Shown here in pieces: positions 5,201-44,735 of a stretch of 64,000 nt of DNA; position 1 is the stretch's first letter, and every line of letters starts with the position of its first letter. The notes under the pieces were generated by a model, which had not been told where the DNA came from, did no database searches, and saw only the letters and a program-made list of their open reading frames with translations. Origin of the DNA: Antedon bifida (Eukaryota; Echinodermata; Crinoidea; Comatulida; Antedonidae); the NCBI GenBank assembly GCA_963402885.1, contig OY727099.1, positions 15,829,001 through 15,893,000 of the forward strand, in the 5' to 3' direction. A program made the position numbers and the translations under genes.

Positions 5201-5352
5201 TCTGTAAGTTGATTCTGGTAGGTTTCTATACAATTATCAATTAATTCGCTAATTCCAATGCAGAATTTATCGTCATTAAGTAGCTCGTTATTAATTTTCC
5301 AGTAACCTTTTCCGCGATTTTCATCTTCAAATTGTAGAGTTAAGTGTACTGC
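2297..5352 (-). pseudogene. LINE B ORF2, linker, reverse transcriptase and C-terminal finger
   Basis: After the post-endonuclease linker the reverse transcriptase shows NNKSPGYDGLSPEFYKKFW, NWRPISLLNVDYKLITKC, GIMLCVDFKKVFDSIEKDYL, QGCPISAFLFVLAIEPLA and FADDTTIF, where ADD holds two of the catalytic aspartates. The C-terminal zinc-binding segment CNSCNKISDINHMFYFC lies near 2590-2650. From about 4670 to the stop the frame is open for 791 codons. One frame change lies in the linker near 4925. Together with the piece at 8440-9120 this is the complete ORF2 of LINE B, split by LINE C. Confidence 0.9.
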
Positions 5353-5501
5353 CATATGGCTTTTGGAAATCTTTAAGAGGTGGTAAACACGATAAAAACA
5401 AAGTAATAGGTTGTATCAAGGTACCAGGTACCAATAATACTGTTTCGGATAAAAAGTTAATAAGCCAAACAATCAAACAATACTGGGAAACCCTAGGTAA
5501 A

Positions 5502-7640
5502 ATGGATCAGGATATGTGTGATTACAATTTTTTTAGAACCAAGAAGTCGGTTGAACAAATTAGAATCAATTATGAAAATGATGACATATCCATAGGCAAT
5601 AGAGAAAATTACTTATATGACATAGAAATTAATTATGAGATTGTTGCCGAATCTATTTCACTTGCAAAAAATAATAAAGCTCCAGGACCCGACTACATTA
5701 CCAATGAACTAATAAAAAACGGGGGAGACGTACTAAACAACTCATTGCTAAAACTATTTAAGAGAATAATTATACTTGAAAAAATACCATCTGAATGGAA
5801 CACTAGCATTATATGTCCAATTTTTAAAAAAGGAGATCGTAAAGACCTAAACAATTATAGAGGAATCTCTCTAAACTCATGCGTTTCAAAGGTCTTTAAT
5901 AGAATAGTGGCAAAAAATATATCCCACTATCTTGAAAACAACGATGTACTTTCGGAGGTCCAGGGAGGTTTTAGATCAGGACACAGATGTGAAGACCATA
6001 TATTCACTCTAAAAAGTGTTGTCGCATGTCGTCGAAAAGAGGGAAAGACAACACATTTAGCCTTCCTGGACTTCCGAAAGGCGTTTGATACCGTGTGGAT
6101 AGATGGCCTATTAACAGCAGCCTGGACTTCAGGCATTAGAGGCCGCGTCTGGAAAATTATTGATGCACTTTACACAAATGTACGAGGTCATGTAAAGTTT
6201 GGGGATATATGTACAGATTATTTTAATATCGAACAAGGTGTAAAGCAAGGGTGTGTACTCTCACCTGTACTTTTTTGCATTTTTATACACGAGTTTACAA
6301 AACTTCTGAAATCCCATAATATTGGAGTACGAATTAATGATATCTGGCTAGGAGGAATTTTTTGGGCTGATGATGTTGTTCTTATTGCAGACAATGAACA
6401 TGAAATGAAAAAAATGTTGGATATTGCAACCCAATTTGCCAAAGTTTGGAAACTAAAATTCAATTATGAAAAATCAAACATTATGATAATCGGCAAGCGA
6501 ACTGATAAAAATAAGATATGGAAGTTAGGAGATTATGGCATTTCAGAAGTCGATACTTATAAGTATTTAGGTGTTTTTATATCACGTAATCTAAATGATC
6601 ATGTTCATTTTGAAAATTTAATTAAAAAGGGAAATCGCCTAATTGCTTATATCAAGTCAATTATTGACAATTGTAATAACTTCAACCGCATATACTATGG
6701 TGATATTTTATGGAAGGTAATCGCTTTACCGTCAATTAATTATGCTTGCTCAACGTGGTGTGGTAGTTATTCTGACGTTGATAAACTTGAAAAATTGCAG
6801 CTTCAAATGGCACGGTGTATTTTAAAAGCACCACGTAATACACCACGGACAGCGTTGTACGGCGAACTTGGCTGGTCGCCTATTTCTGTTATACAGGATA
6901 ATTATAGGATAAATTTTTTCAATCGTATTTTATTGATGGATCACAATCGATGGCCAAAACTATTACTTACTTCTTTGCTTGACTTAAACTGTAATTTTAA
7001 TCTATTAAGTTATAAGATTGTAAATCACTTAGAAAACCTATTTACTAAAGGTAATGCAAATGATATATTTGAATATATTCGTAAAAACAAAGAAATTGTT
7101 AATTCACATTGGGTGTGCCCTCTTAAACAATCTCTCTTTGATTTATCAATTACTAATTGGAGCCAAGAGTTAAATACAAAATCATCACTCAACGAATACA
7201 AATCTTTAAAAAAAAACCCTTGTCTTGAAACTTACCTTCTGGACAAAACAGATTTTGAAGGGGTAAGCATCAAATTTAAGCTGCGCACAAATACTCTGCC
7301 ATTAGAAGGTAGAAAATGCAATTGGCTACCTGAAAGTGATGGTTTATGTAGTCTATGCAATATGAAACGTATAGAAAACGTAACACACTTCCTATTTGAA
7401 TGTCCTGCTTACGACGACATTAGAAAAGAAGAAACCATGAGTTTAAAACTACAATTGCAATCTTCTAACCTTAATCATATTTGGCACTTATTCATAAATT
7501 CTAATACTGATGTTAAAATACACCTAACACTTGGAAGTGACTATCATGTGTTCAGTAAAGAAACCCATCTAATACTTGATAAATTTTGCAAAATATATGC
7601 CAAAAGAGCATGGAAAAAGCGCTCCGCAATTATCAATTAA
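5502..7640 (+). CDS. LINE C reverse transcriptase (partial ORF2, open frame)
   Basis: The frame encodes 712 residues from the first ATG and stays open upstream to about 5358. Reverse transcriptase blocks: NKAPGPDYITNELIKNGG, LNNYRGISLNSCVSKVFNRI, THLAFLDFRKAFDTVWIDGL (first catalytic Asp), QGCVLSPVLFCIFI and IFWADDVVLIA (Asp pair), then DTYKYLGVF. A C-terminal finger CSLCNMKRIENVTHFLFEC follows. The palm motif reads W-A-D-D where most LINEs have F/Y-A-D-D. The endonuclease is absent because of 5' truncation, so this copy could not move by itself, although the RT reading frame is uninterrupted. I could not assign the clade with confidence. Confidence 0.85.
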   Translation: MDQDMCDYNFFRTKKSVEQIRINYENDDISIGNRENYLYDIEINYEIVAESISLAKNNKAPGPDYITNELIKNGGDVLNNSLLKLFKRIIILEKIPSEWNTSIICPIFKKGDRKDLNNYRGISLNSCVSKVFNRIVAKNISHYLENNDVLSEVQGGFRSGHRCEDHIFTLKSVVACRRKEGKTTHLAFLDFRKAFDTVWIDGLLTAAWTSGIRGRVWKIIDALYTNVRGHVKFGDICTDYFNIEQGVKQGCVLSPVLFCIFIHEFTKLLKSHNIGVRINDIWLGGIFWADDVVLIADNEHEMKKMLDIATQFAKVWKLKFNYEKSNIMIIGKRTDKNKIWKLGDYGISEVDTYKYLGVFISRNLNDHVHFENLIKKGNRLIAYIKSIIDNCNNFNRIYYGDILWKVIALPSINYACSTWCGSYSDVDKLEKLQLQMARCILKAPRNTPRTALYGELGWSPISVIQDNYRINFFNRILLMDHNRWPKLLLTSLLDLNCNFNLLSYKIVNHLENLFTKGNANDIFEYIRKNKEIVNSHWVCPLKQSLFDLSITNWSQELNTKSSLNEYKSLKKNPCLETYLLDKTDFEGVSIKFKLRTNTLPLEGRKCNWLPESDGLCSLCNMKRIENVTHFLFECPAYDDIRKEETMSLKLQLQSSNLNHIWHLFINSNTDVKIHLTLGSDYHVFSKETHLILDKFCKIYAKRAWKKRSAIIN

Positions 7641-8340: not shown

Positions 8341-8439
8341 GCTAACTTAATGTATGTAATGTATGTAAGAACGCACCATCCAGAAGAACGTGTGCCGCCG
8401 ATTTAAAGGCGTATGTTCAATAAAGTTATTATTATGGTC

Positions 8440-9120
8440 GGATTTGGGGGCGGTTACAATTTTAATTGACTTAACCAATGTATCCATATCTGACGATAAA
8501 AACCAGTAATCAAGAGTACAATATATTAAAGGGTTGTTTTGTTTCCATGTGAATCTTTTTTCACTTGCATGTTTGGCTCTCCATATATCAGAGAGGTCGA
8601 ACATTTCTAGTAACGACTTTAAAGTGTTTACACTCGTAGGTTGGGTGTTGTTTCCACCAATTTTGTCAAGGGAGTTATTAAGCACAGTGTTCATATCACC
8701 ACCTAACAGAATTTTACCATTGGTAGAGTATTTTAAAATTATATCCGCTAAGTTTTCAAAGAATTTGTTTCGTTCAGTGTTATTGTTAGGAGCGTAAACG
8801 TTCCATAAGTAATACGTTAATTTATTTATAATTATGCTAACGCCTACAATTCTACCTACATTATCTTCATAAATTAGTTTATGCTTGAGCTCTGATAACC
8901 GGTTTTTAATGCCTATTATAACCCCACAACTATGATTAGTCCCGTATGACCCATAGAACGTTCCCTCCCATTCTTTTCCCCATGCTTTCGTATCAGTTTT
9001 ACTACAGTATGATTCTTGGATAAATATAATGTCGCTGTTCCTATTGTTTAGCCATGTAAAAATACATTTGCGTTTTTTGTTACGGATTCCTCTAACATTT
9101 AAGGTAGTGAAAGAGATCAT
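8440..9120 (-). pseudogene. LINE B ORF2, AP endonuclease domain (5' half, cut by LINE C)
   Basis: It opens with MISFTTLNVRGIRN, the usual first residues of an L1/Tx1 ORF2. The endonuclease landmarks follow in order: IIFIQESYCS (metal-binding Glu), YYLWNVYAPN, LLGGDMNTVL (catalytic Asp/Asn) and APKSDHN (catalytic Asp-His). The family enzyme nicks target DNA to prime reverse transcription. Reading is in frame up to the SDHN motif, where LINE C interrupts it. The rest of the protein resumes at 5352 with AVHLTLQFEDENRGKGYW, exactly what follows SDHN in intact Tx1-like proteins. Confidence 0.88.
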
Positions 9121-9174
9121 TTGATTATTATTGATTTAGTAGAGATTAGTTATTAGTGGTTTTGTTACAGCTTC

Positions 9175-20440: not shown

Positions 20441-20635
20441 TTTGCACATTGGTAGCATGCTGCATGAGAGTGTCTTTTCCGGCCATCTAGGGGTGTCATT
20501 TAACAAAATTTGCTTCGTCTCAGGCCCCACCCCCAACAAAATTCGCTTCGCCTCATGCCCCACCCCGGGGGAGTGGAGTGGACCCAAATACTTAGTGTCC
20601 GAACCCCCCCTTGACAAATCCTGGCTACGGCCCTG

Positions 20636-21450
20636 TAAATGGACTTAAAATTACTGGCATTGAAACATTGTGCATTTTGCTTAAGAGACTTGCATATCCA
20701 TGCAGGTACATTGATATGGTGCCAATGTTTGCCAGGCCCATCCCCCAACTGTGCATGATAACCAATATGGCTCTGAATGACATATACAACAGATTTGAGC
20801 ATCTCTTTAGCAATTGCTTTGATCAGCCTTGGCTATCTCCAGGCAATATGGAACGTTTTGCTGCTGCAATACACAGTTCCGGTGCTGCACTTGACAATTG
20901 TTGGGGTTTCTTCGATGGGACAGTGCGTCCGATTTGCAGGCCTGGAGAAAATCAAAGAATAGTTTATAATGGTCATAAGCCTGTTCACTCATTAAAATTT
21001 CAATCAGTCGTCACGCCAAATGGACTTATAGCAAATCTGTTTGGACCCATCGAAGGATGTCGTCATGATGCCTTCATGTTGAGGGAATCAAACCTACTAC
21101 ACAAGTTAGAACGCAATGCTGTATGTCCCCTTTGTATCTATGGAGACCCTGCATACCCTCTTCGTGTTCATTTACAGGCTCCTTTTAAAGGAAACTTAAC
21201 ACAGGCTCAAGTTGACTACAACAGATCTATGAGCCAGGTTAGAGTATCTGTTGAATGGCTGTTTAGAGACATTGTAGAAAACTGGAAATTTGTAGACTTT
21301 AAGAAAACACAAAAAATAGGCCTGAGTGCAATTGGGAAAATCTATGTAGTTTGTTGTCTGTTGACAAATGCCCACACTTGTCTTTATGGAAATATTACGT
21401 CAAGAAGCTTTCAACTCGATCCGCCTGCCCTTGAGGAATATTTTCGATAA
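20636..21450 (+). pseudogene. Harbinger transposase, DDE_Tnp_4 catalytic part
   Basis: The open frame begins at the edge of the inserted element and reads VNGLKITGIETLCILLKRLA, AALDNCWGFFDGTVRPICRP (first Asp, codon at 20914), IVYNGHKPVHSLKFQSVV, CIYGDPAYPLRVHLQAPF (second Asp, 21144) and QVRVSVEWLFRDIVENWKF (Glu, 21253). It ends at a stop at 21448-21450. These are the DDE residues of PIF/Harbinger nucleases, which cut DNA with the help of the Myb-like partner encoded nearby on the other strand. The catalytic domain itself is unbroken, but the gene is split from its 5' exons by a 2.4-kb insertion. Confidence 0.87.
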
Positions 21451-22363: not shown

Positions 22364-23305
22364 TTACTTTTTTTCAATTATACGGAGCATGAGCTCCATT
22401 TGTTTATTCATTTGAACGTTTTGATTTTGTATCTGTTGACGAGTTAATTCCATTTGTTGTTTCATCATCAACAACATACTTGATTGCGTCTCTTCAGCTT
22501 TTTTCTTAGCAGCAGCATCACTCTCCATTTTCACTTTTAAAAATTCCATTGTACTACTTGCTCTGCTTTTTTTTACCTCTCTGTTAATATATAAAAATAA
22601 AAATATATGACTAAATAATAATATTGTGCAATTCTTTTTCATGTACAATAAACTATGACTGCTCAGATTGGTATACTTATTTTTGGGAAAAAATAGACAA
22701 CATGATATCATTTACACTATATAGACAGATAGAAATAGTTTTGTCTACGTACTGCTTACCATACATATTGCAGTATGAGATCAAGTTTTAATTACATCAT
22801 CTCTGTCTACATTTTTGTCTTTGTATTGCTTTACTTTTAGTAAAAACATGTCAAAAATGGAATAAATATGTCATCAAGATCAATTTACCTTGATTTAGTC
22901 TGAAATTTCTCTAATGAGCGCTTCCTAACCTCTTCACCTGCAGCTCGTGCTGCGGCTGCATCACCACTCTCTGATCTTATATTTAATGCATCTTTCTCCT
23001 GACTTAGCAAATCTTCTACAGCAGCTTCTGTTTCTGATAATGCTGGTGGAGCGATACCAGACCCTCTTATCTCATTATTCAATTTTGCCTTCAACTTGTC
23101 CTTTAATAGATTCCATCTATCCCTAACATTTCTTCCATCTAAGTTGAAGTCGAAAGATGGTGAAAGATTGCCTGCAATGTCTTTCCATACTTTTCCGCGT
23201 TGCTGCGTTCTTTCTCTGTACTGGAAAGGATCCAGCGTAATCATTTCCTTCACTAGCTGGTCATCCTTTTCTGGAGACCACTTCTTAGTTGGAGATATTT
23301 TTTTG
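22364..23305 (-). CDS. Harbinger Myb/SANT-like DNA-binding protein (two 3' exons seen)
   Basis: The exon at 23305-22889 reads KKISPTKKWSPEKDDQLVKE, then FQYRERTQQRGKVWKDIAGN, FNLDGRNVRDRWNLLKDKLK and a tail with LLSQEKDALNIRSES. This is a trihelix/Myb-SANT fold with its three spaced Trp/aromatic positions. The donor AAG|GTAAAT joins in phase to the exon at 22580-22364 (acceptor TTAACAG), which reads REVKKSRASSTMEFLKVKME and a Gln/Met-rich coiled coil ending in LMLRIIEKK and a stop. In PIF/Harbinger elements this protein takes the transposase to the ends. The first exon must lie upstream, perhaps near 23940-24000, but no clear ATG could be chosen. Confidence 0.8.
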
Positions 23306-23394
23306 CTAAAATAGGATAAAAAATGTATGTAAAATATCAATCAATAACACTACAGATTAAAAGTATTTTGTCATTGATGTTGTTATAGCTCAGT

Positions 23395-30788: not shown

Positions 30789-30794
30789 TCATGC
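30789..30794. repeat. 6-bp target-site duplication, left
   Basis: TCATGC, identical to 44128-44133. Confidence 0.85.
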
Positions 30795-31765
30795 TATGGA
30801 AAGCCAAACCCGCCAAAAATACATAATACATACCATCCACCAATAATTAATTCGTACAAAATTCAAACCATCCAATATTATCTCATGCAGTTCAATGAAA
30901 ACTTAAACCATTCACCTAGTATCTACACCATCCAATATAATGTGTGACCATCTATCACTAGCCCAAACGACAATACGCCGAACAAACTACCCATAACACA
31001 AACCATCTAAAGAATGTTGAGCCCAGGCAGCAATAATTGAATTAATCTAACGTTAATACAAGTATATATTAGTCAACTCATTTATCAACATTTCATGTAG
31101 TTCATGAACATTTCAAACAAAGCATCTTAATTATAGTTCATCGAATTCTAATTCTAATACATTGCCTGTTTTATACACCGTTCGTCTGTTCAACAGTTGA
31201 AACAACTGTTTTGCACACGATACGCCCGTTCGTGAGTTCAAACCATGATATTTGAAGCATCGACTTTCCAAACAGCGATTTTTCGCACCGAACGTATTTT
31301 CTTGAGTTAAAGTGGTTGCATTTCAATCACTTACTTTTGATTGGCCAGTATTACACACCGTTCGCTTGTTCGTGATTTCAAACCATGATATTTGAAGCAT
31401 CGACTTTCCAAACGGCGATTTTTCGCACCGAACGTATTTTCTTGAGTTAAAGTGGTTGCATTTCAATCACCTACTTTCGATTGGCCAGTATTACACACCG
31501 TTCGCTTGTTCGTGATTTAATGTGATAACATTTCATTCGACAACTTTTCAAACGTTAGCTTTTGGCTCCGCTTACGTATATATCAGTTGATATACTATTT
31601 TTTAATTTTCATACTTTCCATACATCAGTTTTGTACATCATTCGCATTTACGCATGTAAAGTGTATTTATTCCACTCGACAAGTTTTAAAACGGTAGTTT
31701 TTGTTTTATTGTTTAATTGTAACTGTTGGCGCCGATTTTATATTGGGGTGGGGGGGGGGGGGGAG
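30795..31765 (+). repeat. Left terminal inverted repeat of the 13.3-kb element
   Basis: Pairs with 43000-44127. It begins TATGGAAAGCC and ends beyond a G-run (31746-31764). It contains two tandem subterminal units of about 140 bp (31232-31370 and 31371-31510), each with CCATGATATTTGAAGCATCG and a TTCGCACCGAACGTATT word. Confidence 0.92.
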
Positions 31766-32014
31766 GTGTTCGGTACTGAATGTGAACAGTACACATTTTT
31801 AAATATGGTACCTCTACATGTCCGGAAATTACACTCTCTCAAAAAAGGTTTTTTTTTCCGTAGTGTGTAATATTAAATCAACCACAACCACAACCGTAAG
31901 ATGAGAACATTTTAGGAACAATGGACATGTTATGCCCTGAAATTGTACTCATTAAAAATATTCCAGCTAGAATAAAATGTATAGTCCCCTCTCATATTCC
32001 CAAAAGTCTTTAAC
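31766..32014. promoter_or_regulatory. Upstream region of the integrase gene
   Basis: About 250 bp between the TIR and the integrase ATG. The promoter must be here or in the TIR. I see no clear TATA box; ATAAAATG-like words are common in this AT-rich DNA. Confidence 0.35.
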
Positions 32015-34820
32015 ATGGCGTATGTTCCTATTGCTATTGCTTTGCAAGAAATCTGTCAAACACTTGAACAGTATGTGAATGGTAACATTGATAGAAATCT
32101 ATTAATGCCACTCCCAATGCGACTGGAGGTTATTATCGAAACGATAATCGGGCATGAAAATATCCGGTTAGAGGTAATCGATAATCTTGTAGCGAGTAAA
32201 AGAGCGATAGAAGAAGTCATTGGCCCAGGCCAGGTAGGAGACGAACATCCCACTACGAACTCTGCCATGATTCACACTGGCAGACCAGGACGGGCAAGAT
32301 TTGTGATCGGGCGTAGTCAGCTGCAGTTCTTTGTGGGTGCGTATTATTTTTAGGCCTCCTAGGTTTTGGGCCTAGGCCTATGTATCATTATCTACTTTAA
32401 TTATTTCTTGTCTTTGGTAAAGTGGCTACCATCGAAGTAAGTAATTCATTCATTAAATTAAATTCGTGTTACGGAAGCCATCTTCTTCTTGAAGAGAGTG
32501 GCAAACAGTCGTAACCAGCCGAGCCTTAAAAACAATTATTTTTTGTTTTTTACGCTCGGCTGATCATGGTTGTTTATCATCTTTGTAAGATAGTAGCACG
32601 AACATAGTGTGTTTAATACAAATTTAAAGTAGGCCTAACGACCTTTACTTTTATGTGAAACAAATTTTGTAATTTAAATATTAATATATTGCATGACAAA
32701 AGGTAGGTAGGTTGCATGATAGGTAGGCCTACTGTATTATTTTTTTAAAAATTATTATGAGGCTCTTGCAATAATAAGCATGTAGAGTCTTTTTTCTCTC
32801 GAAAATATTACCTTACAGTACAGTACTTTGAATTATTTCTTAGAATTTTCTAGCCAATATATTATCCAATTCCCATATAACAATTTAGTATTAATAATGA
32901 ACAAAATTTGGTGTTTTTGTAAACCTAATATTTTACTTTCCGTTCAGTCTTCTCTCCATAGTCAGTTATTTTCATTTACTTCGTAGACAACAACTTTACT
33001 GTTCAGGACATGAGTAAAATGTTTTCTGTAAGTAAAAGAACGATAGAAAGGAGGCTACAAGAATACAACATGACAACAAGAAACTACACAGATATTTCTT
33101 CCGAGTTTCTAGACGCGCGTATTGGCATGATAACCATGAATTTTCCAAGATCAGGTAGGTATTGAAAATATACAGAATGGCTTGTTTTGTTACGCGACGG
33201 ACTTTAGAATAGAAGAAGTACTCCTTCGACATGATAAGCATACAAAATAAGGATTATTTTTTGAAAGGTTGGGTTAGATACGATGATCGCATCATTTATT
33301 GATGGGATGGGATTCTTTCTAAATGATAGAGAGTAGTACCACTGTTTGTAGCGGTAGCTATTTGCATAGTTTGCTTATTTGTTTTTCTTTATTCATCATT
33401 TCATCTTAACACTAGGACTTAAGTCAATTGAGGCTCATTTGATGAAAGACGGCATACGAGTACGAAGAGAAGCATTGCGAGATTCTGTCAAAAGGGTTGA
33501 TCCCGTTGGGCGTCATTTGCGGTCTCTGCGTTGCATACGCAGACGAGTTTATTCAGTGCCATCTCCGTTGGCTCTGTGGCACATAGACGGGAATCATAAA
33601 CTAATAAAGTAGGTCTACACGTTTATGATATGTTATGATCAAAACAGATTCGTAGGCAACCCGACGCAGATATGAAAAATGATAATGTAAATGTAAGAAA
33701 TTTACATTTTATGATACAATAACATAAAAGTATTTTCAGTTTCCTTTATAATTGTCGTATGTTTGATTCTACAGATGGAGGTGTGTGATTCATGGAGGTA
33801 TTGATGGTTATAGTAGAGCGATAGTGTACCTAAAACTCAGTACAAATAACAGGGCATGCACGGTTCTAACTTGTTTCCAGGAAGCTGTCAGAAAATGGGG
33901 ATTGCCGTCGAGGGTGAGAGCGGACAAGGGGATCGAAAATGTTGATGTGGCTCGCTTAATGTTGAACCACCCTTCTAGAGGACCAGGCAGAGGTAGTTTT
34001 ATTACTGGAAAAAGTGTTCATAACAGCAGGATTGAAAGATTGTGGAGAGATGTATTTGAGGCTGTTATATGTTCCTGGCGCACATTCTTTAGCAGTTTGG
34101 AAACCATGGGTTGTTTGGACCCAGATAACGAGGCGCATATTTTTATTTTACATTTCATTTATGTACCCATTATTAATAGTATGTTGATGGATTTCCAACT
34201 GATGTGGAACAACCACAAACTGCGGACCGAGCACAACAAAACCCCAAATCAATTGTTCATAATGGGTATACAAAATATTGCATCCGATGCAAGCATCATA
34301 GCGTCTGAGTACTTTGAAGCCATACCAGAGGTAACGTGGAGTTGTATAAATTAAAGTAATAAATAAAACCTTCATTTTATACGGTATTCTTGGATTTAGA
34401 ATGTAAGGCGAACGGATGTTCGTATAATTTGTTTGTCGTAACAACTACGTTATTATAAACCTGTAACAAAAACTATTTTAAAAATAGTCTCCCCGACACA
34501 CACATTATACGTGAGAAACTACTTGTATAGTTAGCTGTTACCGTACACATTTTAATTTTACCGTGTCTTGTGTGATCTACCTAATCTTCTTTCATTATTT
34601 TGGCTTATTGTAGGAAAGTGTTCAGCAGTATGGTATAGATCCAAACTCACCCCTTCCAGAAGAAAATGATGGTATAGTTGTCCCTGACACTGCCTGTCCA
34701 ATGAATGATGAACAACTCTCTTTATTTAAGGATGAAATAGACAATGCGCTAAATAATGCAGTTGATATTTGGGATGCAACTCCTTATTTACGAGGCTTAG
34801 ATATTGTTTCTGAATTTTGA
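32015..34820 (+). CDS. IS3-like / rve DDE integrase (transposase), 5 exons, 481 aa
   Basis: Exons 32015-32336, 32987-33154, 33416-33608, 33775-34330 and 34614-34820 all have GT-AG borders and join in phase to a stop at 34818. Residues 1-107 are a helical head. Residues 108-164 contain a helix-turn-helix-like block ([20 protein letters not shown]). The catalytic core has [11 protein letters not shown] (D221), [26 protein letters not shown] (D278) and [14 protein letters not shown] (E315); the D278-E315 gap of 36 residues is near the integrase D(35)E spacing. The tail is acidic and ends [10 protein letters not shown]. The family joins element ends to target DNA in the nucleus. No stop or frame break is seen. 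The same protein type is scattered through fish and invertebrate genomes as unnamed integrase-core proteins. Confidence 0.9.
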
Positions 34821-35621
34821 TGAGTAATAATGACTATTGTGAATGTTTAAAATAGAAAATTATCATAATGCATATATTAATAATTTGGTTGGCATTTACA
34901 CTTTAGTATTGGAAATCAGGCTGTGTGAATATCGATTGTTTTGAAAAACAACTTATTCTCAAATGAATGTTAATGTTTTTATTAGTTAATTATATAGGCC
35001 TAAAAATAGCTGTGTAGATTGGGGATAGAGAGAGAGAGCATGTTGCACAATTTTACTGATTGGTGTATTTAATGACTGCCTTAATTGTTAATTAACAACA
35101 AGTTTCTTTAATTGTTAAAGAAAAACGTTTATTGCCATTAAATTGAAAAGGTTATTATATGTCCTAAAATCAATACCGTAGTCAACATATGATTTGCTTT
35201 AACATTTTTTCTACTGATGTGTAAACTAAATATGTTTGTTGAAAATAATGTTGTACTTAATGTTTCAAGAACTGCCGACACTAAAATGTTTAGAATCAAA
35301 TATTATATTTCATTTATTTAGATCTACCCTGTACAGGGGGTTTAAGAACTGGTATGCCTAATGTTTAAAACGGAAATAATATGAAAACGTATTAGCTCAT
35401 AACAACCCTTTCAACCATCGCTCATCTTCTTCTGTCATATATCTTTCCGTTATGTAAATACAAATTACCACCACTCTTTCTCAACGGTCACCTCCTCTAT
35501 CCACTCTCCATGTCCTAAATTGAAGCATTATGGATTTTGCTCTGTGATTGAACCAACCCATATCTACAGTAGAAAACTTTATTTAAAGTATGTCACTTGC
35601 TTTGTTCTGACCCACTTAGGT
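34821..35621. terminator. Intergenic region between the convergent genes
   Basis: About 800 bp separates the two stop codons. Poly(A) signals are ambiguous in this AT-rich DNA. A (GA)n-like patch lies near 35027-35038. Otherwise nothing is supported. Confidence 0.4.
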
Positions 35622-38600
35622 CTACACATTACCAAAAAACTGTTGAGAAAATGCCAAATCATACATATTGAACAGTGTGTCTTTTGGCGGCAGACTGCAT
35701 GTTAAACCTGGCCGTGGAAGTTGCATACTGTTAATACACGTGTTGGCAGACGGGAGAAAAGAACCTGCTGTTTCTGTAAATACTATTTGTGGATGGAGAA
35801 CAAAACCCAACACTGGTTCTTCATCCGTTCCGGTCACAAACTGCAACAGATGACCAAGCGTCAGGTGACCTCTTCTACCACCTATGAAAAAGAGAGGTAA
35901 AAGTCAAAACAAATCAAGTCATAACAAAACCCTTTTAGCCATCGCATCAGTAAGTGACTTGGCTTAAATGCTTTGAATAGTTTTAACACTGCATGTTCTG
36001 ATATGAATTAAAAGTAATGAGGTTTAAGAAAATTTGAAAAATGTCGGAGTAAAGCGAATTTATTTTGGTATGTTACGGTTATTGCTCTTTTTTGCCATTT
36101 TAGACACTGTTATTATATGGTTTGCGACGGCAACAACAAATACTTCACTTGTATAGCGGACACATCCACTACAAGTGTGCTCAATGCAATATTCCTTTAT
36201 TGTTTGTTTATTGTTTTCCACACATAATAAACTTAAAGTTAAATTGTACTAAACGAAAAGTGACTTCAGAAATACACATAAATAAATAAGGGTAAGTGTG
36301 TGGAAGCCAAAATAAGCTTGAGAACTTTAGGGCATGGCCACCGGTTAAAATAAGGGTTTAAACAAATAATGGATTGCATTATGCTACAGTAGGGCAGAAA
36401 AAGGAAAATATACGAACAGACAGTCTGTGTTTTTCTATAACTTATAACTTACTAGCAACCTCTCTGACGCAGTCCAGAAATCGGGCATATACAGAACTTT
36501 CAAATATCTTAGTGTTTGAGCCATCGCTGCCTTTAAAAGATGGCTTCAACAATTCTTTCATCTTTTTTACAGATAATAGTGCTGCAGGGCTGGGTCGAAA
36601 AAGATGAACAAATGTTGGTATGTGACAACAAAGCTATAGAAAATAATTAGATAAAATGGTAGACAAGTGAATTGAATTTACAATTTTCAGTTGATCATTG
36701 AACGCATTACATTATTGTTTCGAGCAGAGATGAAGCATTATAGTGATTGGATCTGACGTATGCATATCATTGTGTTTTAGTTACTTATTTAAAGATATGG
36801 ATCAGAAGCTTAAACTGGCAGTAACTGGTTTTGCGCTCTGTATATGTATATTGTAGCAGTACTGTACGACATACCTGATATATCCCCAACTTTGCGAGTC
36901 CCTTTCTTAAATTGGTTATGCACTCAGAAGGAGCACTGCTGTTGACGAGTTCGTCGATAAGGTCACTGTGCATGAATTGTGGCAATTTGCCATTCTGGAC
37001 AATACTCATAGCTGTTAAAAGATAACCATTTTTAAATACATTAAATCATTATAACAGTACCGTACTAGTAAAAAGAAACAAAATAAAACATACGGTATAA
37101 GGCTATTAGGAACCAATTTGGTGAAAACAATTGTTGCATTTACACGTCACACGTCAAGGAACCTCAAATAGCACCGTGAATCGCGTGATTTTATTGTAAG
37201 TAGACATTGAAAACCTACCCATTATTATGCCGATGTAGTAATATTCCTCGGGAACGTGTTCTTTCATACCGTTATCAAAATAACCATCTTTTATTGCTCT
37301 TAAAGCCAACACAAAAAATTCTTTCCTCGGGCCGCCATAATCGGCTGCTCTCTGTGTGTAAGATATGAAATTACTGTATAGCAACACGGTTAACATCTCA
37401 TTTTAACTAAAATGCTTTGAATATATTCGATTAGTTTTTACAAATTCAATTGTTTTTTTTTATTATCATTGTATTTCAAAAGGTTGATTTTATTTATTAC
37501 AATAAAAATTTATTTAATATACCTCATCATAGAATTGCACTTCCAGTGTTTTGCGGTAGTCGGCCATATCCCTAATTTCCGAAAAAGCAGTTGCAAGCAC
37601 ATCTTCTCTATTAATCATAATAAAATTTGTTTCCCCTTCGATTACCTCTGCTTCATCTTCTATCTCTAGTGGTCTTCCTGAAACAATAGCTTTTTGGTAA
37701 TAACGTAGCACTTCTACAGGATTCCCATTAATGTTGTGGGTATTGCAGTAATTCACGGTATCTTTGACAATTGTTTCAATAGTAGTAAGAGCAGGTTCTC
37801 GTTCGTTACGTTCTGGTTCGTTAACAAACTAAAAATAACAATTATTTTTGTAAATGATGATACTCATCAAAACCGAAAGCTATAGTACATACTCTTGCAA
37901 TAATACATAACTTCTATTATAACATAGCTAGGTAGCTTATCTTTTTCACTGAAATCGCACTATGTTTAGTTTTTTAGTTCTAAAAGTTGTTTATATAATT
38001 ATATTTAAATAATGAACTAGGAACTAGCTTCACAGACATTGAATGAGTAGTGCCTACGTACAATGTTTTCAACAATTTCTAAGTCTAAGTTCTGTTCTGT
38101 TCTGTTCTGTTCTAAGTTATCGGAGGCCGGTATTGGTTCGGTGGCCGGTATTGGTTCGGTGGCCGGTAGTCCCGGTTCCAGGTCACTGTCTGATGAACTT
38201 GAATCTTCGTTCTGGGGTTCAATAAGAGAAGATAATGTACAGTAATATTGCGTGGTCGAGTGAAAAAAAAGTTGTTAGCCTAAATTATGATAGAAATATT
38301 CAAATTAAGCATTTTGTTATGTTAAAAATGTATTATACAAATCAAATAAAAAAAGGAGAATATTGATAATATCTGAAAACCGGTAATTACCGGCAAGTCC
38401 GTATCGGGAAAATTGATTTTCAATTCTCGTTTCTGAAAACTGAAACTGATTACCAATACTACTTTCTTCTCTTTCACAGGTAATTACCATGCAATATTTG
38501 ATGTGCACTTTCATGTTCTTCATGGAAATGTCGGCCCTACAATTTAAACATTTTTCTCGGGCTTCCACTAATGGTATTTCTGCCTCCGGTATATCCCGCT

Positions 38601-40125
38601 GCAATGGGCGAATGTATAATTTTCCAGAACCAAATGTTCTAAGGTCTTGAACTTTACATGGCCCGTAATGGACAACAATCAGTTTTTTGCGATCACCTTC
38701 CTTTGCCATTGTTATCTCAAACCCTCCGCAATTTGCAAGCAACGGAAATGTTCTACAAAAACAAATTAAAAATAAATATGTAGAATTTTGTTCTCATTTG
38801 CAAAATGTCATAAGCATCATCATCATAGTTGATTATTTTCTCTTTAACAAACAGTATTTTGGCAAAATCACCACAGAAAACATTTCGATGTGAAAACATT
38901 AGAAAAATTATCTTACTTAAATACCAGGTTGCAAAAATCGTCTTGATTGCCTTCCGCTGGAAACACAATTTTCTTCTCGCCATAGCCGTTATCTTTCAGT
39001 TTTCGACGTTGGGCTACAGTAGGAACAGTTTCCATTTTGTGTTCCATGAGGCATACTAAAAATCTTCAATGTCAATGTTCTTCCTAACAAAGGATAAAAC
39101 ATCTTATAAAAACCATCTTTTATTAATATTAATAATCATTTCGGTCAATTAAGAAGATAAGACCTCCTTGTATTATTATTAGGCATGTTTTTGATTATTT
39201 TTGGTTAAATAGCAAATTTTGTTACATGGGCTAATTGTTGGAGGTTATCAAATATACAGATATGTTAGGAATTACATAACATCGTTATTCTTTTTATTAT
39301 ATGTTTAATAAAACTGTTAACATTTCAACTTTATATAAAAAATATACACCAATAAACCTGATTGGCAGTATTATCCGAACTCAACTATAACATGACGTAA
39401 TAACTGTACCGACCTAAATACATTACACACGACAGCTTCTAAACTCTCATTGTGAAAATACAATTAAAATTGATGCGATAAAACAATTACCATCGTACCT
39501 TTTCCAGATGCTTTACTACTGGTACTGTTGTTGCTATGACCCCTGTTATATGGGGTTTGTCTCTGAAATAATATTATATGTACACAGTGATAAAAACTCG
39601 TTCAAAATGTTAATTTTACTTGTAATACAAAAAATATATGATGTTTTACTGAACGGCCAGGTAAGTCTCCAACAAAATTAATAAAAATGTGATGGACAAC
39701 ATGTTAAAATGTGGCACCATTGTATTGAAAATTATTTAAACTGGATTGGTACAGGCTTGGAGCCACTTAATAAGCTATCTATCGGTACAATAGTAAACGA
39801 TTCGGGTGCCAAGAAGAAGGGGGTTTAGTAACATGATGCAACTTACATAATTTCGATTGAACAGTCGTCTGTGTTCACTCGCAATACTTTGGTCTATGCT
39901 AGGCGTACTGCTGGTGCTAGCACTGGAACTCAACGTAGATCTACTACTACTTCTGCTACTACTAGGCCTACTAGTACTAGCAGCATGACTAGTGGTTGTA
40001 GTAGTGCTACTAGTAGTACTAAGCTCACTACTACTATTGGAAATGGTAGCAGGCGAAGGAGTGTTTGTGATAGAATTTGCTAACCACTGCAGCACCTGCA
40101 AAACACTACGTAAATCATCTGACAT
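35622..40125 (-). CDS. HECT-type E3 ubiquitin ligase, transposon-borne, 10 exons, 637 aa
   Basis: Exons on minus: 40125-39847, 39562-39499, 39055-38917, 38752-38488, 38211-38062, 37828-37523, 37351-37219, 37011-36875, 36633-36453, 35881-35622. All borders are GT-AG and the 1914 coding bases keep frame. Layout: Ser/Thr-rich head (1-93), AQRRKLKDNGYGEKK near 130 bases into exon 3, a CCHC-like finger (C136, C139, H151, C155), an acidic PATEPIPATEPIPAS linker, then the HECT domain from INREDVLATAFSEI through LEVQFYDERAADYGGPRKEFF and FMHSDLIDEL to the C-lobe LLQFVTGTDEEPVLGF with catalytic Cys600 in PSANTCINSMQLP. It would pass ubiquitin from an E2 to a substrate. Similar G2E3-like orphan HECT genes are numerous in fish and corals. 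The exon 4/5 donor choice (38488) is set by phase; an alternative donor lies near 38397. Confidence 0.88.
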
Positions 40126-40394
40126 ACTGGATGATACCTGAAACGAATGAGTCCATACAACTTGTATTTACACTTTTTCACAATTTCACGTTAATTTATC
40201 ACATTTTAAGTTTATATACTAGAAAATCAATATTATTCCTAGAGCCTAGGCCTATATGGTTTAGAGCTATTTGGCAAAATAAAAAATAATTGTTCAGTGG
40301 TAGGCTTCTGTACTATTTATTATTAATAAATACAACCATTGATTAAAATATCGGTCTACGCACAATCGGAGGTTTATATATAATTTAATATAAG
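40126..40394. promoter_or_regulatory. Upstream region of the HECT gene
   Basis: Short AT-rich stretch 5' of the HECT ATG (40125-40123), ending at the candidate LTR. No core promoter motif is convincing. Confidence 0.3.
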
Positions 40395-41950
40395 TGTAAC
40401 CCTATGATTTTTATGAATATATTTTACCATTTATATCTTTCTGTTTGATTTTATTCATTTGAATGTATCTGTTTTTACAATGTATATAAATATAGTTTAT
40501 AGGTCAGTAGAAAAGAATGCAGCTTAATTGCAACAAAGGTTACCCCAAGTGGGTCAAAGTGACCACTGTTTGGGAAGTAAGGAATGTGTTTTGCCAAGTT
40601 GCTAGGCAACTAAGGTGATTATACCTCATTTCTGATGAGTATACATCACTTCCACTTGTGCCTGCTCACAAGAAACATCTATACATTTTTAACAACTTTA
40701 AAGGAAGTCACTTTTTCATATTTTGGCTCTTTTCTTAGGTAAGAACTATCAATTATATTATTTTATGTTTAACAAATGTGTTAATATAACTTAATTTGAG
40801 ATTTAAGCTTATGAAGATTAGGTTTATGCATTATGTTTGCATTGGCTCAATGCTTTAGATTAGTTATGTGATACTTAACTTTGATTATATTTTATAACTT
40901 TTGTGATACCATTTGCAATTGCGCTTGGTAATTTATGTTACTGTAAAGTAAGGTTCTGCAATCACACATTGTTCTCTCCCGTTTTAAGTTAAAGGGTCTT
41001 GAAGTGATTAACTTGCTTTTGCTAATACTTTTAATTTTATGAGTGTATCAGGACGATTCTGGTAAATGTGGGTCATTTACTAGATGGCAGTACACTCTTG
41101 GTATTGATTGACCTAGAGACAATTGGAGTGTGATTGTAGAATTGATACTATTGTATTATACACTTATTTTTTGATTTCCGCTTTATATGCGACATTTATT
41201 TTTATACATTTAATTACCTTTTAGTTTATAATTTAGTTTATTGAATGGATGCATTAACCATCCTGAGTTTATAATAGTCAGGTTAATATGTTGATAGACA
41301 CACGTTTGAATAGCTATTGCTATTATCCATTGCGTTGCAATGTAGTTATATTGGTATCAAGTATTAGCATACTTACCAAACGAAGTACCTCTAACTATAT
41401 AATGTAACTATTGTTTTAATGAGTAGTGTGAATAATCATATACCAATCAGTGTTAATCGAACCTGATGGTATTGACGGATTATATTTTATTTTGTTTAAT
41501 TGTCTATCATAGCCTAGGTTATTTTGCAAACATTGTGGTATTGTAATTATGTACCAAATGATATTTGATTTAAATTGTTTTATAGTTATATAGTATATGT
41601 ATATATTTTCTCTTTTCTTAGATGAGAAAACACTACTTTTGAAATTTACGAATCATTATTGCAATTATTACACCATTGGTCGGAACATTTCGTTGATAAC
41701 ATTTACTCTACTGTGGAACCTTTCAAGTCGGAATTGTTTCAACTGAAGACTCAATTTTAATATAAACTTTTAGTTTTGTGGACACTTTAATGTTTTATCT
41801 TGAGAACAAATAATATTGGTTTTATGTAAATTCCGACAAGTTGATGTCAAAGGAATAAATCTACATTTTTAATTTATAAGGCGTTTTCCTTGATTTGATT
41901 ATTTAATACTTCTTGGAAATTTTAGTTTCTTGCTAGAAACTCGGGTTACA
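40395..41950 (+). mobile_element. Candidate solo LTR (fossil), about 1.56 kb
   Basis: It begins TGTAACCC and ends GGGTTACA, a TG...CA pair with an 8-bp terminal inverted repeat as in LTRs. A TATAAATA word lies about 90 bp in, and an AATAAA signal about 95 bp before the end. No internal coding region and no second LTR adjoin it, and no clear target duplication is visible. If the call is right it inserted into the 13.3-kb element after that element existed, so it is younger. Family cannot be named. Confidence 0.35.
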
Positions 41951-42999
41951 AATGTAGGCCTAGGCTAGGCCTATGTGTAATAATATTATATTATAGCTGG
42001 ATAATTCCTATAATTAGTAATTTCAGCTACAAAATCCAGGTTCCAATCCTGGTCACCACTCATGGCACTAATTGTAGCTTTTTATAAAATAATGATAATA
42101 ATTCCAATATTAATAATTATTAGGGCCTAGGCCTAGCCTAGCCTAGGCCTAGCCTAGGGCTAGGCCTATACTATACAGAAAAGTATAACAATAACTTAAA
42201 CCATCATCAATTTCACCTACAAAATCGATAAAACACAGAATTTAAAATAATAATAATAATAATAAAACAGGAAAACACTATTAAACATTATTATATTTAT
42301 TTATCTACCTATCATCAGTATACGTACGGTACGTACCTTTTTTGGTCTTCCTGAGCTGAATCAATTCAATCAGCATCAATGTGTGAAAAATGACGAACTA
42401 CGCAGTTGAATAGCCCCCATAACAGCGTTGGGTTATTTAATGCATGATGAATAACAAAATAATTATGATTTAATAACAATACACATGTTTTTATTTAATC
42501 CATGATAAATATTCGTAAAATATGTTTATTCGGATATTTATTAATTACGTCTCCACTAAAGTCTATAAAACATAATGAATGTCATTATTTCAAATAAATA
42601 GGCCTACCCCGTAAACAAATGGAAGCGTCTCAACAACAGTTAATTTATGCATCATAGAGAACACAGAGCAGAAATGGCTCTAGGCCGGCCTCATCTAGCA
42701 GCCGCCGCACAGGAGGAGAGAGAAGCACGATACCAGCTCTCCCCCCCCCCCCACCCCTGTCTCTCCCCCACAGGCGGGTGAGGTGGGTGTTACCCCGGGC
42801 CTAGTTGTGGGGCGTAAAATTGTAACAGGCCCACAAGCTAAATTATATTATTTCATTCTGTTTTTTTTTTCATTATGTAAGTTTGTGATAATGTGTGTAA
42901 CCAGGGAGATGTAAAATAAATTTATAAATTAGTTTACATCTCCCTGTGTGTGTAACGTAGGCCTAGGCCTAAGTAAGTGTCATACAGTCGTAAAGTTGA
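41951..42999. other. Simple-sequence and spacer DNA inside the 13.3-kb element
   Basis: Contains a TAGGCCTA cloud (42120-42160), a short (AAT)n run near 42247-42263, a C-run (42740-42752) and a short inverted repeat around ACCAGGGAGATGTAAA (42900-42946, AGTTTACATCTCCCTG). No gene. Confidence 0.5.
42005..42062 (+). ncRNA. tRNA-like fragment (possible SINE or tRNA relic)
   Basis: CCAGG TTCCAAT CCTGG (42037-42053) would make a perfect 5-bp T-arm with a 7-base loop, matching a Pol III B box with one mismatch. The upstream half does not fold convincingly, so a functional tRNA is unlikely. Confidence 0.3.
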
Positions 43000-44127
43000 C
43001 ATTCACCCCCCGCCCCTCAATATTAAATCGGCGCCAACAGTTACAATTTAACAATAAAACAATAAATGTGCGAACAACTACCGTTTAAAACTTGTCGAGT
43101 GGAATATCTACACTTTACATGCGTAAATGCGAATGATGTACAAAACTGACTAGGATGGAAAGTATGAAAATTAAAAAATAGTATATCAACTGACATATAG
43201 GCCTACGTAAGCAGAGTCAAAAACTAACGTTTGAAAAGTTGTCGAATGAAATGTTATCACATGAAATCACGAACAAGCGAACGGTGTGTAATACTGGCCA
43301 ATCGAAAGTAGGTGATTGAAATGCAACCACTTTAACTCAAGTAAATACGTTCGGTGCGAAAAATCGCCATTTGGAAAGTCGATGCTTCAAATATCATGGT
43401 TTGAAATCACGAACAAGCGAACGGTGTGTAATACTGGCCAATCAAAAGTAAGTGATTGAAATGCAACCACTTTAACTCAAGAAAATACGTTCGGTGCGAA
43501 AAATCGCTGTTTGGAAAGTCGATGCTTCAAATATCATGGTTTGAAATCACGAACAAGCGAACGGTGTGTAATACTGGCCAATCAAAAGTAAGTGATTGAA
43601 ATGCAACCACTTTAACTCAAGAAAATACGTTCGGTGCGAAAAATCGCTGTTTGGAAAGTCGATGCTTCAAATATCATGGTTTGAACTCACGAACGGGCGT
43701 ATCGTGTGCAAAACAGTTGTTTCAACTGTTGAACAGACGAACGGTGTATAAAACAGGCAATGAATTAGAATTATAATTCGATGAACTAAAATTAAGATGC
43801 TTTGTTTGAAATGTTCATGAACTACATGATATGTTGATAAATGAGTTGGCTAATATATACTTGTATTAACGTTAGATTAATTCAATTATTGCTGCCTGGG
43901 CTCAACATTCTTTAGATGGTTTGTGTTATGGGTAGTTTGTTCGGCGTATTGTCGTTTGGGCTAGTGGTAGATGGTCACACATTGTATTGGATGGTGTAGA
44001 TACAAGGTGAATGGTTTAAGTTTTCATTGAACTGCATGAGATAATATTGGATGGTTTGAATTTTGTACGAATTAATTATTGGTGGATGGTATGTATTATG
44101 TATTTTTGGCGGGTTTGGCTTTCCATA
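43000..44127 (-). repeat. Right terminal inverted repeat of the 13.3-kb element
   Basis: Reverse complement of the left arm, longer because it has three rather than two of the 140-bp subterminal units (about 43262-43400, 43401-43546, 43547-43690). Otherwise the arms differ by scattered substitutions only. Confidence 0.92.
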
Positions 44128-44133
44128 TCATGC
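44128..44133. repeat. 6-bp target-site duplication, right
   Basis: TCATGC, the first bases of a minisatellite unit that continues to the right. Confidence 0.85.
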
Positions 44134-44735
44134 AGTACACACCAATCGTCATGCAGTACACACCAATCGTCATGCAGTCAAATATTGCGTAATTTATACC
44201 GCCACCTATCGACAAAATCAAATATCACGTGACTTTTATTAGACGGCTGTAAAACTAATGCCATCGACTCTAAGATTTCCTTTATGCTTGACATACTGTA
44301 CTTATTTTAACCGCTGCACATAAGCTCTGTTTTTTTATATATACAATAATTTATTAATGCGAGACACAGGCGCGGCTAGGAGGCCATTGTAATTATTGAA
44401 TTCCATAATAAGAAGTATAAATAGTCTTAGTTTTACAGCCGTCTAATAAACGTCACGTGATATTTGATTTTGTCGATAGGTGGCGGTATAAATTACGCAA
44501 TATTTGACTGCATGACGATTGGTGTGTACTGCATGACGATTGGTGTGTACTGCATGACCATTGGTGTGTACTGCATGACGATTGGTGTGTACCGCATGAC
44601 GATTGGTGTGTACTGCATGATGTTTGGTGTGTACTGCATGACGATTGGTGTGTACTGCATGATGTTTGGTGTGCACTGCATGACGATTGGTGTGTACTGC
44701 ATGATGTTTGGTGTGTACTGCATGATGAATGTGAA
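44134..44735. mobile_element. Palindromic element with minisatellite arms
   Basis: A segment of about 85 bp beginning CAGTCAAATATTGCGTAATT (44166) recurs inverted and ends at 44509, around a loop of about 170 bp. Outside each arm are copies of a 21-bp unit CATGACGATTGGTGTGTACTG, two on the left (inverted) and about eleven on the right (44507-44732). No coding capacity is supported. Confidence 0.75.
44507..44732 (+). repeat. 21-bp minisatellite, about 11 copies
   Basis: Unit TGCATGACGATTGGTGTGTAC; the later copies alternate with a variant bearing ATGTTTGG in place of ACGATTGG. As 21 is a multiple of three, a spurious frame encodes a heptapeptide repeat (MTIGVYC). Confidence 0.95.

What the first reader, a model, noticed from the sequence alone, without database searches (positions are those of the whole stretch)
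30795..44127. Whole-looking 13.3-kb transposon pairing an IS3-like integrase with a HECT ubiquitin ligase
Seen directly: identical inverted ends, about 1-kb inverted arms, a perfect 6-bp duplication, and two convergent genes whose 5 and 10 exons splice in phase without a stop. Known: IS3EU is, as I recall, a little-studied eukaryotic superfamily with an IS3-like DDE protein and a 6-bp duplication. Inference: this is an intact, recently active member, and the ligase is real cargo rather than a captured bystander, since it lies well inside the TIRs.
Basis: partly seen in the sequence, partly recalled or inferred. Interest (0 to 1): 0.92.

Follow-up and report, generated by a model that had tools for sequence, protein, structure and literature searches.

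The report
Crinoid transposon carrying a ubiquitin ligase
This is a real, recently mobile DNA transposon, probably of a feather star, that carries besides its transposase a gene for a ubiquitin-tagging enzyme; distantly related transposons in the same genome carry the same pair, so the enzyme looks like a long-standing partner and not an accidental passenger.

Summary
Confirmed. Window 30795-44127 is a 13,333-bp element with TATGGAAAGCC...GGCTTTCCATA ends, a perfect 6-bp duplication, 1-kb inverted arms, and convergent genes for an integrase-type transposase (5 exons, 481 aa) and a HECT ligase (10 exons, 637 aa). Host: probably the crinoid Antedon mediterranea. I found eight near-identical copies at seven sites, all seven with perfect 6-bp duplications. 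It fits published IS3EU hallmarks. 'Intact' is doubtful for this copy's ligase: alone among five copies it has a 4-bp insertion at exon 3; six other copies have ligase deletions or a frameshift. It looks like an ancient second gene; its substrate is unknown and I favour a trans-acting helper. No open-licence paper found links IS3EU with ubiquitin; Repbase could not be checked.

The parts
30789..30794 (.). left target-site duplication TCATGC
44128..44133 (.). right target-site duplication TCATGC (also the first bases of a 21-bp tandem array 44128-44178)
30795..44127 (.). whole element, 13,333 bp, TATGGAAAGCC...GGCTTTCCATA
30795..31757 (.). left inverted arm (transposase side)
43006..44127 (.). 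right inverted arm (HECT side)
31228..31518 (.). 140-bp tandem units in the left arm, about 2.1 copies
43262..43694 (.). 140-bp tandem units in the right arm, about 3.1 copies
32015..32336 (+). transposase exon 1
32987..33154 (+). transposase exon 2
33416..33608 (+). transposase exon 3, contains catalytic D221
33775..34330 (+). transposase exon 4, catalytic D278 and E315 (36 residues between)
34614..34820 (+). transposase exon 5 with stop
42337..42376 (-). possible upstream HECT exon (MLIELIQLRKTKK of P0001); its join was not resolved
39847..40125 (-). HECT exon 1 as modelled
39499..39562 (-). HECT exon 2
38917..39055 (-). HECT exon 3 as modelled; a private 4-bp insertion lies just upstream, inside the exon part implied by P0001
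38488..38752 (-). HECT exon 4, C-x2-C-x11-H-x3-C finger
38062..38211 (-). HECT exon 5
37523..37828 (-). HECT exon 6
37219..37351 (-). HECT exon 7, GGPRKEFF of the N-lobe
36875..37011 (-). HECT exon 8
36453..36633 (-). HECT exon 9
35622..35881 (-). HECT exon 10 with stop, catalytic Cys in SANTCINSMQLP

Best explanation
It is an IS3EU-type cut-and-paste DNA transposon, probably of a crinoid. SHOWN: the DDE transposase gene, the long inverted arms and the 6-bp duplications form one repeated unit with distinct flanks at seven sites; a HECT E3 ligase gene lies convergent to the transposase in the window copy, in two other full-length copies and in diverged families. INFERRED: the transposase excises the element and joins it across a 6-bp stagger; the HECT protein is made from the element's own promoter and works in trans as an E3 ligase that helps the element persist or move. 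I think its most likely target is a host chromatin or silencing protein at the element (my weights, given a role in the element's favour: host repressor about 0.45, transpososome removal after joining about 0.3, other about 0.25). The ligase was inherited with the transposase over long divergence and was not recently captured; single copies can lose it and may be served by others.
For: Family F1: eight near-identical copies at seven insertion sites; 7 of 7 sites have perfect 6-bp duplications: TCATGC, GAGTTC, GTAGGT, ACCGTT, GAAGCC, CGCGCG, AATTAC. Transposase: Pfam rva_4 4.6e-80; D, D, E invariant in 16 of 16 aligned; Foldseek matches of a crinoid relative's model include IstA, retroviral integrases and TnsB. 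HECT: Pfam 4.1e-9, catalytic Cys and GGPRKEFF invariant in 16 of 16; the 50 Foldseek rows listed (of 291) for the P0001 model are HECT-family ligases, some recognised as such from my own knowledge. Co-inheritance: F3 (transposase 45.3%, HECT 33.0% identical to F1 over 298 and 224 aligned residues) has TATGGAACGCC ends, perfect 6-bp duplications at 5 of 5 end pairs read, and both genes convergent in the two gene-bearing ones; F2 and F4 have the convergent pair. 12 of 17 HECT loci outside F1 lie within 20 kb of a transposase, 10 of the 12 convergent; 20,000 random placements gave mean 0.05, maximum 2. Transposase and HECT identity fall together over five pairs (Spearman 0.82; the ten comparisons share members).
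Against: Within F1 the HECT gene has a deletion or frameshift in six of eight copies (for C7:24.13, C8 and both C10 copies; for the two copies at C7:36.2) and the 4-bp insertion in the window copy; the transposase is broken in one of the six copies read base by base and is matched over all five exons in the other two. So there is no sign that each copy needs its ligase. HECT changes against the window copy are 6:1, 2:0, 4:2 and 4:1 nonsynonymous to synonymous, with a site ratio of 3.6 (gaps left out): too few to show selection, and not in its favour. 10 of 22 transposase loci outside F1 have no HECT within 20 kb; seven of these match over 120 residues or fewer, but C1:6828995 (270), C15:8089146 (162) and C1:15313184 (156) are longer. 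5 of 17 HECT loci have no transposase within 20 kb. An old F1 copy on C1, left out of those counts, shows no HECT in the 8.1 kb read. No expression, ligase or transposition activity was tested.
Confidence: 0.82

Rival explanations
1. The HECT gene is a host gene caught once by one transposon family (bystander or recent passenger).
For: The HECT gene is deleted or frameshifted in six of eight F1 copies while the transposase mostly survives; no purifying selection is visible within F1.
Against: The same convergent pair recurs in F2, F3 and F4 with aligned HECT identity to F1 of 42, 33 and 26%, the catalytic Cys motif kept and the N-lobe motif in variant forms; 12 of 17 other HECT loci lie beside a transposase; the octocoral Dendronephthya has members of both families on contigs of the same length, 379,350 bp, with locus numbers 114538407 and 114538414.
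Confidence: 0.06
2. The ligase limits the element: it marks its own transposase for destruction and so keeps copy number low (autoregulation).
For: Its loss in many copies while the transposase stays intact is what escape from self-limitation could look like; convergent genes could also interfere by antisense (inference).
Against: Long-term retention in diverged families is less easily explained by a costly brake; no interaction data exist. Deletions could equally come from interrupted gap repair, as breakpoints differ between sites.
Confidence: 0.2
3. The HECT genes are ordinary host genes into or beside which transposons inserted, or a product of mis-joined assembly.
For: Some HECT loci stand alone: 5 of 17 outside F1 have no transposase within 20 kb.
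Against: In F1 the HECT sequence lies inside TIRs with different 6-bp duplications outside, and likewise in F3; two further full-length copies on C7 match the window copy at about 98.5-99%.
Confidence: 0.03

Closest known systems
IS3EU superfamily (Repbase; described in PMC10045372, passages read)
   Same: TA..TA termini, usually 6-bp duplications, IS3/IS481-like DDE transposase, no HHCC domain upstream.
   Different: The paper mentions no ligase: 'HECT' and 'ubiquitin' occur 0 times in it. Repbase entries themselves could not be compared.
Fungal TET+ IS3EU transposons (PMC12730594, passages read)
   Same: TAYGG..CCRTA ends, TIRs over 30 bp, 6-bp duplications, and a protein-modifying enzyme gene in the opposite orientation to the transposase.
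   Different: There the opposite gene is an alpha-kinase, with a TET/JBP gene between the two; here it is a HECT ligase. I modelled two genes and did not search the element for a TET-like one.
Styx of Zymoseptoria (PMC10853768, passages read)
   Same: Modelled by its authors as derived from an IS3EU element that encodes two proteins, one a DDE transposase.
   Different: The passages do not name the second protein; 'HECT' and 'ubiquitin' occur 0 times in the text.
HECT E3 ligases such as AREL1 and E6AP
   Same: HECT fold, conserved N-lobe motif and catalytic Cys.
   Different: Different N-terminal part: a conserved unnamed domain and a C2HC finger, with a SAM domain in a number of relatives; 11-17% identity in the listed structure matches.
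GingerRoot (as described in PMC10045372 passages; its own paper is not held)
   Same: 6-bp duplications, mostly TA..TA ends; not separated from IS3EU in that paper's tree.
   Different: Not compared here at sequence level.

Membership tests
IS3EU | TA..TA termini (TAYGG..CCRTA in the fungal members) | tested here: met
   TATGG..CCATA in F1 and F3; definitions
IS3EU | 6-bp target-site duplication | tested here: met
   7 of 7 F1 gene-bearing sites and 5 of 5 F3 end pairs read. F1-like pairs of ends without genes: one perfect, one 5 of 6, one on C13, 11.5 kb apart, 4 of 6
IS3EU | IS3/IS481-like DDE integrase core, no HHCC domain | tested here: met
   rva_4 4.6e-80 and weak rve; no integrase zinc-binding family among the Pfam hits; DD(36)E
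IS3EU | groups with Repbase IS3EU transposases in a tree | not testable with these tools
   Repbase is not held
HECT E3 ubiquitin ligase | HECT N- and C-lobe with catalytic Cys | tested here: met
   Pfam above cut-off for the window protein; Cys invariant 16 of 16; Foldseek. The F4 protein is below the Pfam cut-off, 18.4 against 23.9 bits
HECT E3 ubiquitin ligase | ubiquitin transfer activity | not testable with these tools
   bench assay needed
HECT E3 ubiquitin ligase | reading frame complete in the window copy | tested here: inconclusive
   open only with the downstream exon-3 acceptor; the 4-bp insertion is absent in 4 of 4 other copies that hold this exon
Rad18-type (UBZ4) ubiquitin-binding finger | C-x2-C-x11-H-x3-C spacing (signature recalled) | tested here: inconclusive
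   spacing present in 48 of 103 homologs found, 34 of the 54 that have 575 or more residues; no Pfam hit

The most novel reading that the evidence does not exclude
A dedicated HECT ubiquitin ligase is an ancestral second gene of animal IS3EU transposons, playing the part that an alpha-kinase plays in the fungal ones: a transposon-encoded protein-modifying enzyme that disarms host control or clears the transposition complex. Many unnamed 'HECT-type' genes in animal genomes would then be transposon genes.
Probability: 0.5. Interest if true: 0.85.

Novelty: new variant of a known kind. Interest (0 to 1): 0.7.

Why it matters
Eukaryotic DNA transposons are usually thought to need little beyond a transposase (general knowledge). 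A ubiquitin ligase kept beside the transposase over such divergence suggests that these elements act on the host's protein-turnover system, and it makes that testable: the near-identical copies with and without a complete ligase gene are a natural comparison. It also bears on annotation: relatives are listed as 'uncharacterized protein' or 'HECT-type E3 ubiquitin transferase' in molluscs, hemichordates and cnidarians, so HECT gene expansions there may be transposon expansions. The fungal alpha-kinase parallel suggests a general design: transposase plus an opposite-strand protein-modifying enzyme.

Tried and rejected
Bystander reading: tested by looking for the pair in diverged families, and rejected. 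I picked the 31%-identity transposase family (C16 and three more places) as a likely case without HECT, since the window's HECT query had not found one there; it turned out to hold a 632-aa HECT-like reading frame, convergent.

F4 as independent transposition events: not accepted. The four places are identical also for 150 bp outside the 27-bp inverted repeat on both sides, and the first 400 bp of the C16 stretch match in full only at C16, so the unit ends lie farther out than the repeat and were not found. F4 may not be IS3EU.

Relatives on IMG/VR contigs: none for transposase or HECT. Sequence profile of the transposase against solved structures: no match at 0.01; the fold comparison did give integrases. 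Homologs of the F4 ligase: 8 proteins, none with a named species.

Selection within F1: too few differences to tell. Literature: no paper holds both 'HECT domain' and 'IS3EU'; two hold 'IS3EU' and 'ubiquitin', and in the passages the two words are unrelated; none holds 'HECT domain', 'integrase core domain' and 'transposable element'. Broader searches, seen only as listings of 20 of 27, 4 of 4, 15 of 41 and 3 of 5,949 papers, gave nothing on point. The library holds only open-licence papers, and Repbase Reports were not seen.
Full report
What is there. The window holds a complete 13,333-bp element, 30795-44127, flanked by TCATGC on both sides. Its arms are inverted repeats of about 1 kb, 96% alike over 781 nt, with 140-bp tandem units, one more in the right arm. 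On the plus strand five exons (32015-34820) give a 481-residue protein; on the minus strand ten exons (40125-35622) give a 637-residue protein; the internal junctions are GT-AG, in phase, with one terminal stop each. The two genes converge.

The genome. The closest annotated protein, P0001 (98% identical over 99% of the searched part), is from Antedon mediterranea, a crinoid; that the window comes from this species is inference. No contig whose length I saw has P0001's contig length, so P0001 may come from another assembly. The assembly held here has 315.6 Mb in 27 contigs and the window lies on C12.

The transposase. Pfam rva_4 scores 4.6e-80 and rve is weak. The catalytic residues are D221, D278 and E315, with 36 residues between the last two, invariant in 16 of 16 aligned sequences. 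A model of the crinoid relative P0106 (mean pLDDT 77) matches IstA of IS21, retroviral integrases and TnsB. The protein search gave 1926 relatives at E <= 0.001, of which 120 were listed.

The ligase. Pfam HECT is above its cut-off. The catalytic Cys and GGPRKEFF are invariant in 16 aligned relatives, as are the first three metal ligands of a C2HC finger. The model of P0001 (mean pLDDT 72) matches HECT-family ligases in the 50 rows listed. The search listed 103 relatives, in molluscs, hemichordates, cnidarians, Antedon and unnamed sources; at least the last three rows look like general HERC-type ligases. 74 of the 103 hold both HECT motifs by my patterns. Several relatives carry a SAM domain; in the Antedon protein none was found.

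Copies. Pairing of end sites and the arm search gave eight near-identical copies at seven sites: the window; C7:10876698-10890623; C7:24130368-24143701; C8:27786761-27796149; C10:21570792-21580651; C10:7390097-7407603; and C7:36215070-36244725, which holds two inverted copies. All seven sites have perfect 6-bp duplications. The pattern list shows only the first 100 of 181 end sites, and one search scored 40 of 50 candidates, so the count is a lower bound.

Gene states. In C7:10.88 both frames are complete; its transposase has D320Y at an invariant position of the alignment. In C7:24.13 the transposase has a 16-bp deletion and the ligase a 5-bp insertion. In C8 and both C10 copies the transposase is complete and 5' ligase exons are deleted, each with its own breakpoints. 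The two copies at C7:36.2 share the same two internal deletions in the ligase; their transposase is matched over all five exons by protein search, and I did not read it base by base. So damage falls mainly on the ligase. An older copy on C1:20.93 has a decayed transposase, an inserted reading frame of LINE type (my reading) and no ligase in the 8.1 kb read.

The window's ligase frame. P0001 reads GRTLTRFLVCL where the window model starts exon 3 at VCL. In the four other copies that hold this exon the stretch upstream is 4 bp shorter and agrees with P0001's reading; the window copy alone has the extra 4 bp. The window frame is kept only by the acceptor 28 nt farther on, at the cost of eight residues of a conserved strand. 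Whether this copy makes a working ligase is therefore open.

Is the ligase a partner? Searching the genome with both proteins shows the same pair elsewhere. F2, C8:15.83 Mb: transposase (+) 15829229-15831579 against HECT (-) 15837664-15832938, 53.4% and 42.1% identical to F1; no inverted ends seen in the 12 kb read. F3: C13:19691628-19702668 (11,041 bp, AATTAG on both sides) and C8:21146524-21167514 (20,991 bp, GAAATC on both sides) have TATGGAACGCC ends with transposase and HECT matches inside, convergent; three shorter elements with F3 ends have CCCCTC, GATCCT and GAAAAC duplications. Of the 17 F3 end sites, ten form these five pairs; the other seven were not read as pairs. A further copy at C8:19.27 is 97% alike over most of its length but lacks a proper second end. 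F4: four places with a 410-aa transposase frame and a 100%-identical 632-aa HECT-like frame, convergent; unit ends unknown, HECT below the Pfam cut-off.

A count of nearness. I clustered by hand 22 transposase loci and 17 HECT loci outside F1 (the old C1:20.93 copy counts as F1 and is left out). 12 of 17 HECT loci have a transposase within 20 kb, and 12 of 22 transposase loci have a HECT; 10 of the 12 pairs are convergent, two are on the same strand. Random placement of the HECT loci gave a mean of 0.05 and a maximum of 2 in 20,000 trials. The four F4 places are not independent; leaving out the six F4-like HECT loci, 7 of 11 remain. One search scored 69 of 100 candidates, so HECT loci may be missing. 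Over five pairs (F1-F4 and Dendronephthya) transposase and HECT identity fall together, Spearman 0.82; the ten comparisons share members, and three rest on fewer than 100 aligned HECT residues.

Mechanism. Shown: a repeated unit with ends, duplications and a DDE transposase. Inferred: cut and paste with a 6-bp stagger; internal deletions with differing breakpoints are what interrupted gap repair after excision would leave. The ligase's role is inference. Because copies with a broken ligase share near-identical transposases and have their own duplications, the ligase is either not needed in cis or was lost after insertion; the data do not separate these. I favour a trans-acting helper, with autoregulation as the main rival.

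Known and new. IS3EU is an established superfamily with TA..TA ends and usually 6-bp duplications; 45 families were in Repbase in May 2022, 17 of them autonomous (PMC10045372, passages). Fungal TET-bearing members carry an alpha-kinase gene opposite the transposase (PMC12730594, passages). I found no paper joining IS3EU with HECT or ubiquitin, within an open-licence library. Hence 'new variant of a known kind'.

Noticed in passing
G000:C7:36215070-36244725 (L041, L047, L069-L071): A 29.7-kb composite: two inverted F1 copies with the same two deletions, about 10 kb of other DNA between them, and one perfect 6-bp duplication (AATTAC) at the outer ends only. It may have moved as one unit. The outer tip of the second copy matches the right arm better, its inner part the left arm, as if arms exchange sequence.
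   Followed up: partly
G000:C8:7098384-7098526 and C8:7599880-7600047; F3 ends: C8:26979665-26980496, C16:9890702-9891532, C13:7927930-7929960: Small, probably non-autonomous elements with the F1 or F3 ends and 6-bp duplications; one F1-type has ACAGGC against ACAGGT.
   Followed up: partly
L072-L073, G000:C13:18457410-18468886: Two F1-like 250-290-bp ends 11.5 kb apart, flanked by GGTAGC and CCTAGC (4 of 6 alike), with no match to the element's genes between them.
   Followed up: partly
window 44128-44178 and 44507-44725: 21-bp tandem arrays; the right-hand duplication TCATGC is also the start of a repeat unit, so this one duplication alone would be weaker evidence than those of the other copies.
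   Followed up: partly
window 2300-4936 (-), 5295-7637 (+), 8350-9135 (-): Long reading frames that look like reverse-transcriptase and endonuclease parts of LINE-type elements (by eye).
   Followed up: no
window 20596-21447 (+): 284-residue frame that looks like a Harbinger/PIF-type DDE transposase (by eye), with a Myb-like frame near 22888-23340 (-).
   Followed up: no
P0078 and P0131 (Dendronephthya gigantea): A HECT relative and a transposase relative on contigs of the same length, 379,350 bp, with locus numbers seven apart: probably another linked pair; the scaffold could not be read.
   Followed up: partly
G000:C8:23582357-23584234: A 94-99% identical F4 HECT copy with no transposase found within 20 kb and an F3-type end at C8:23580177 nearby.
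   Followed up: no
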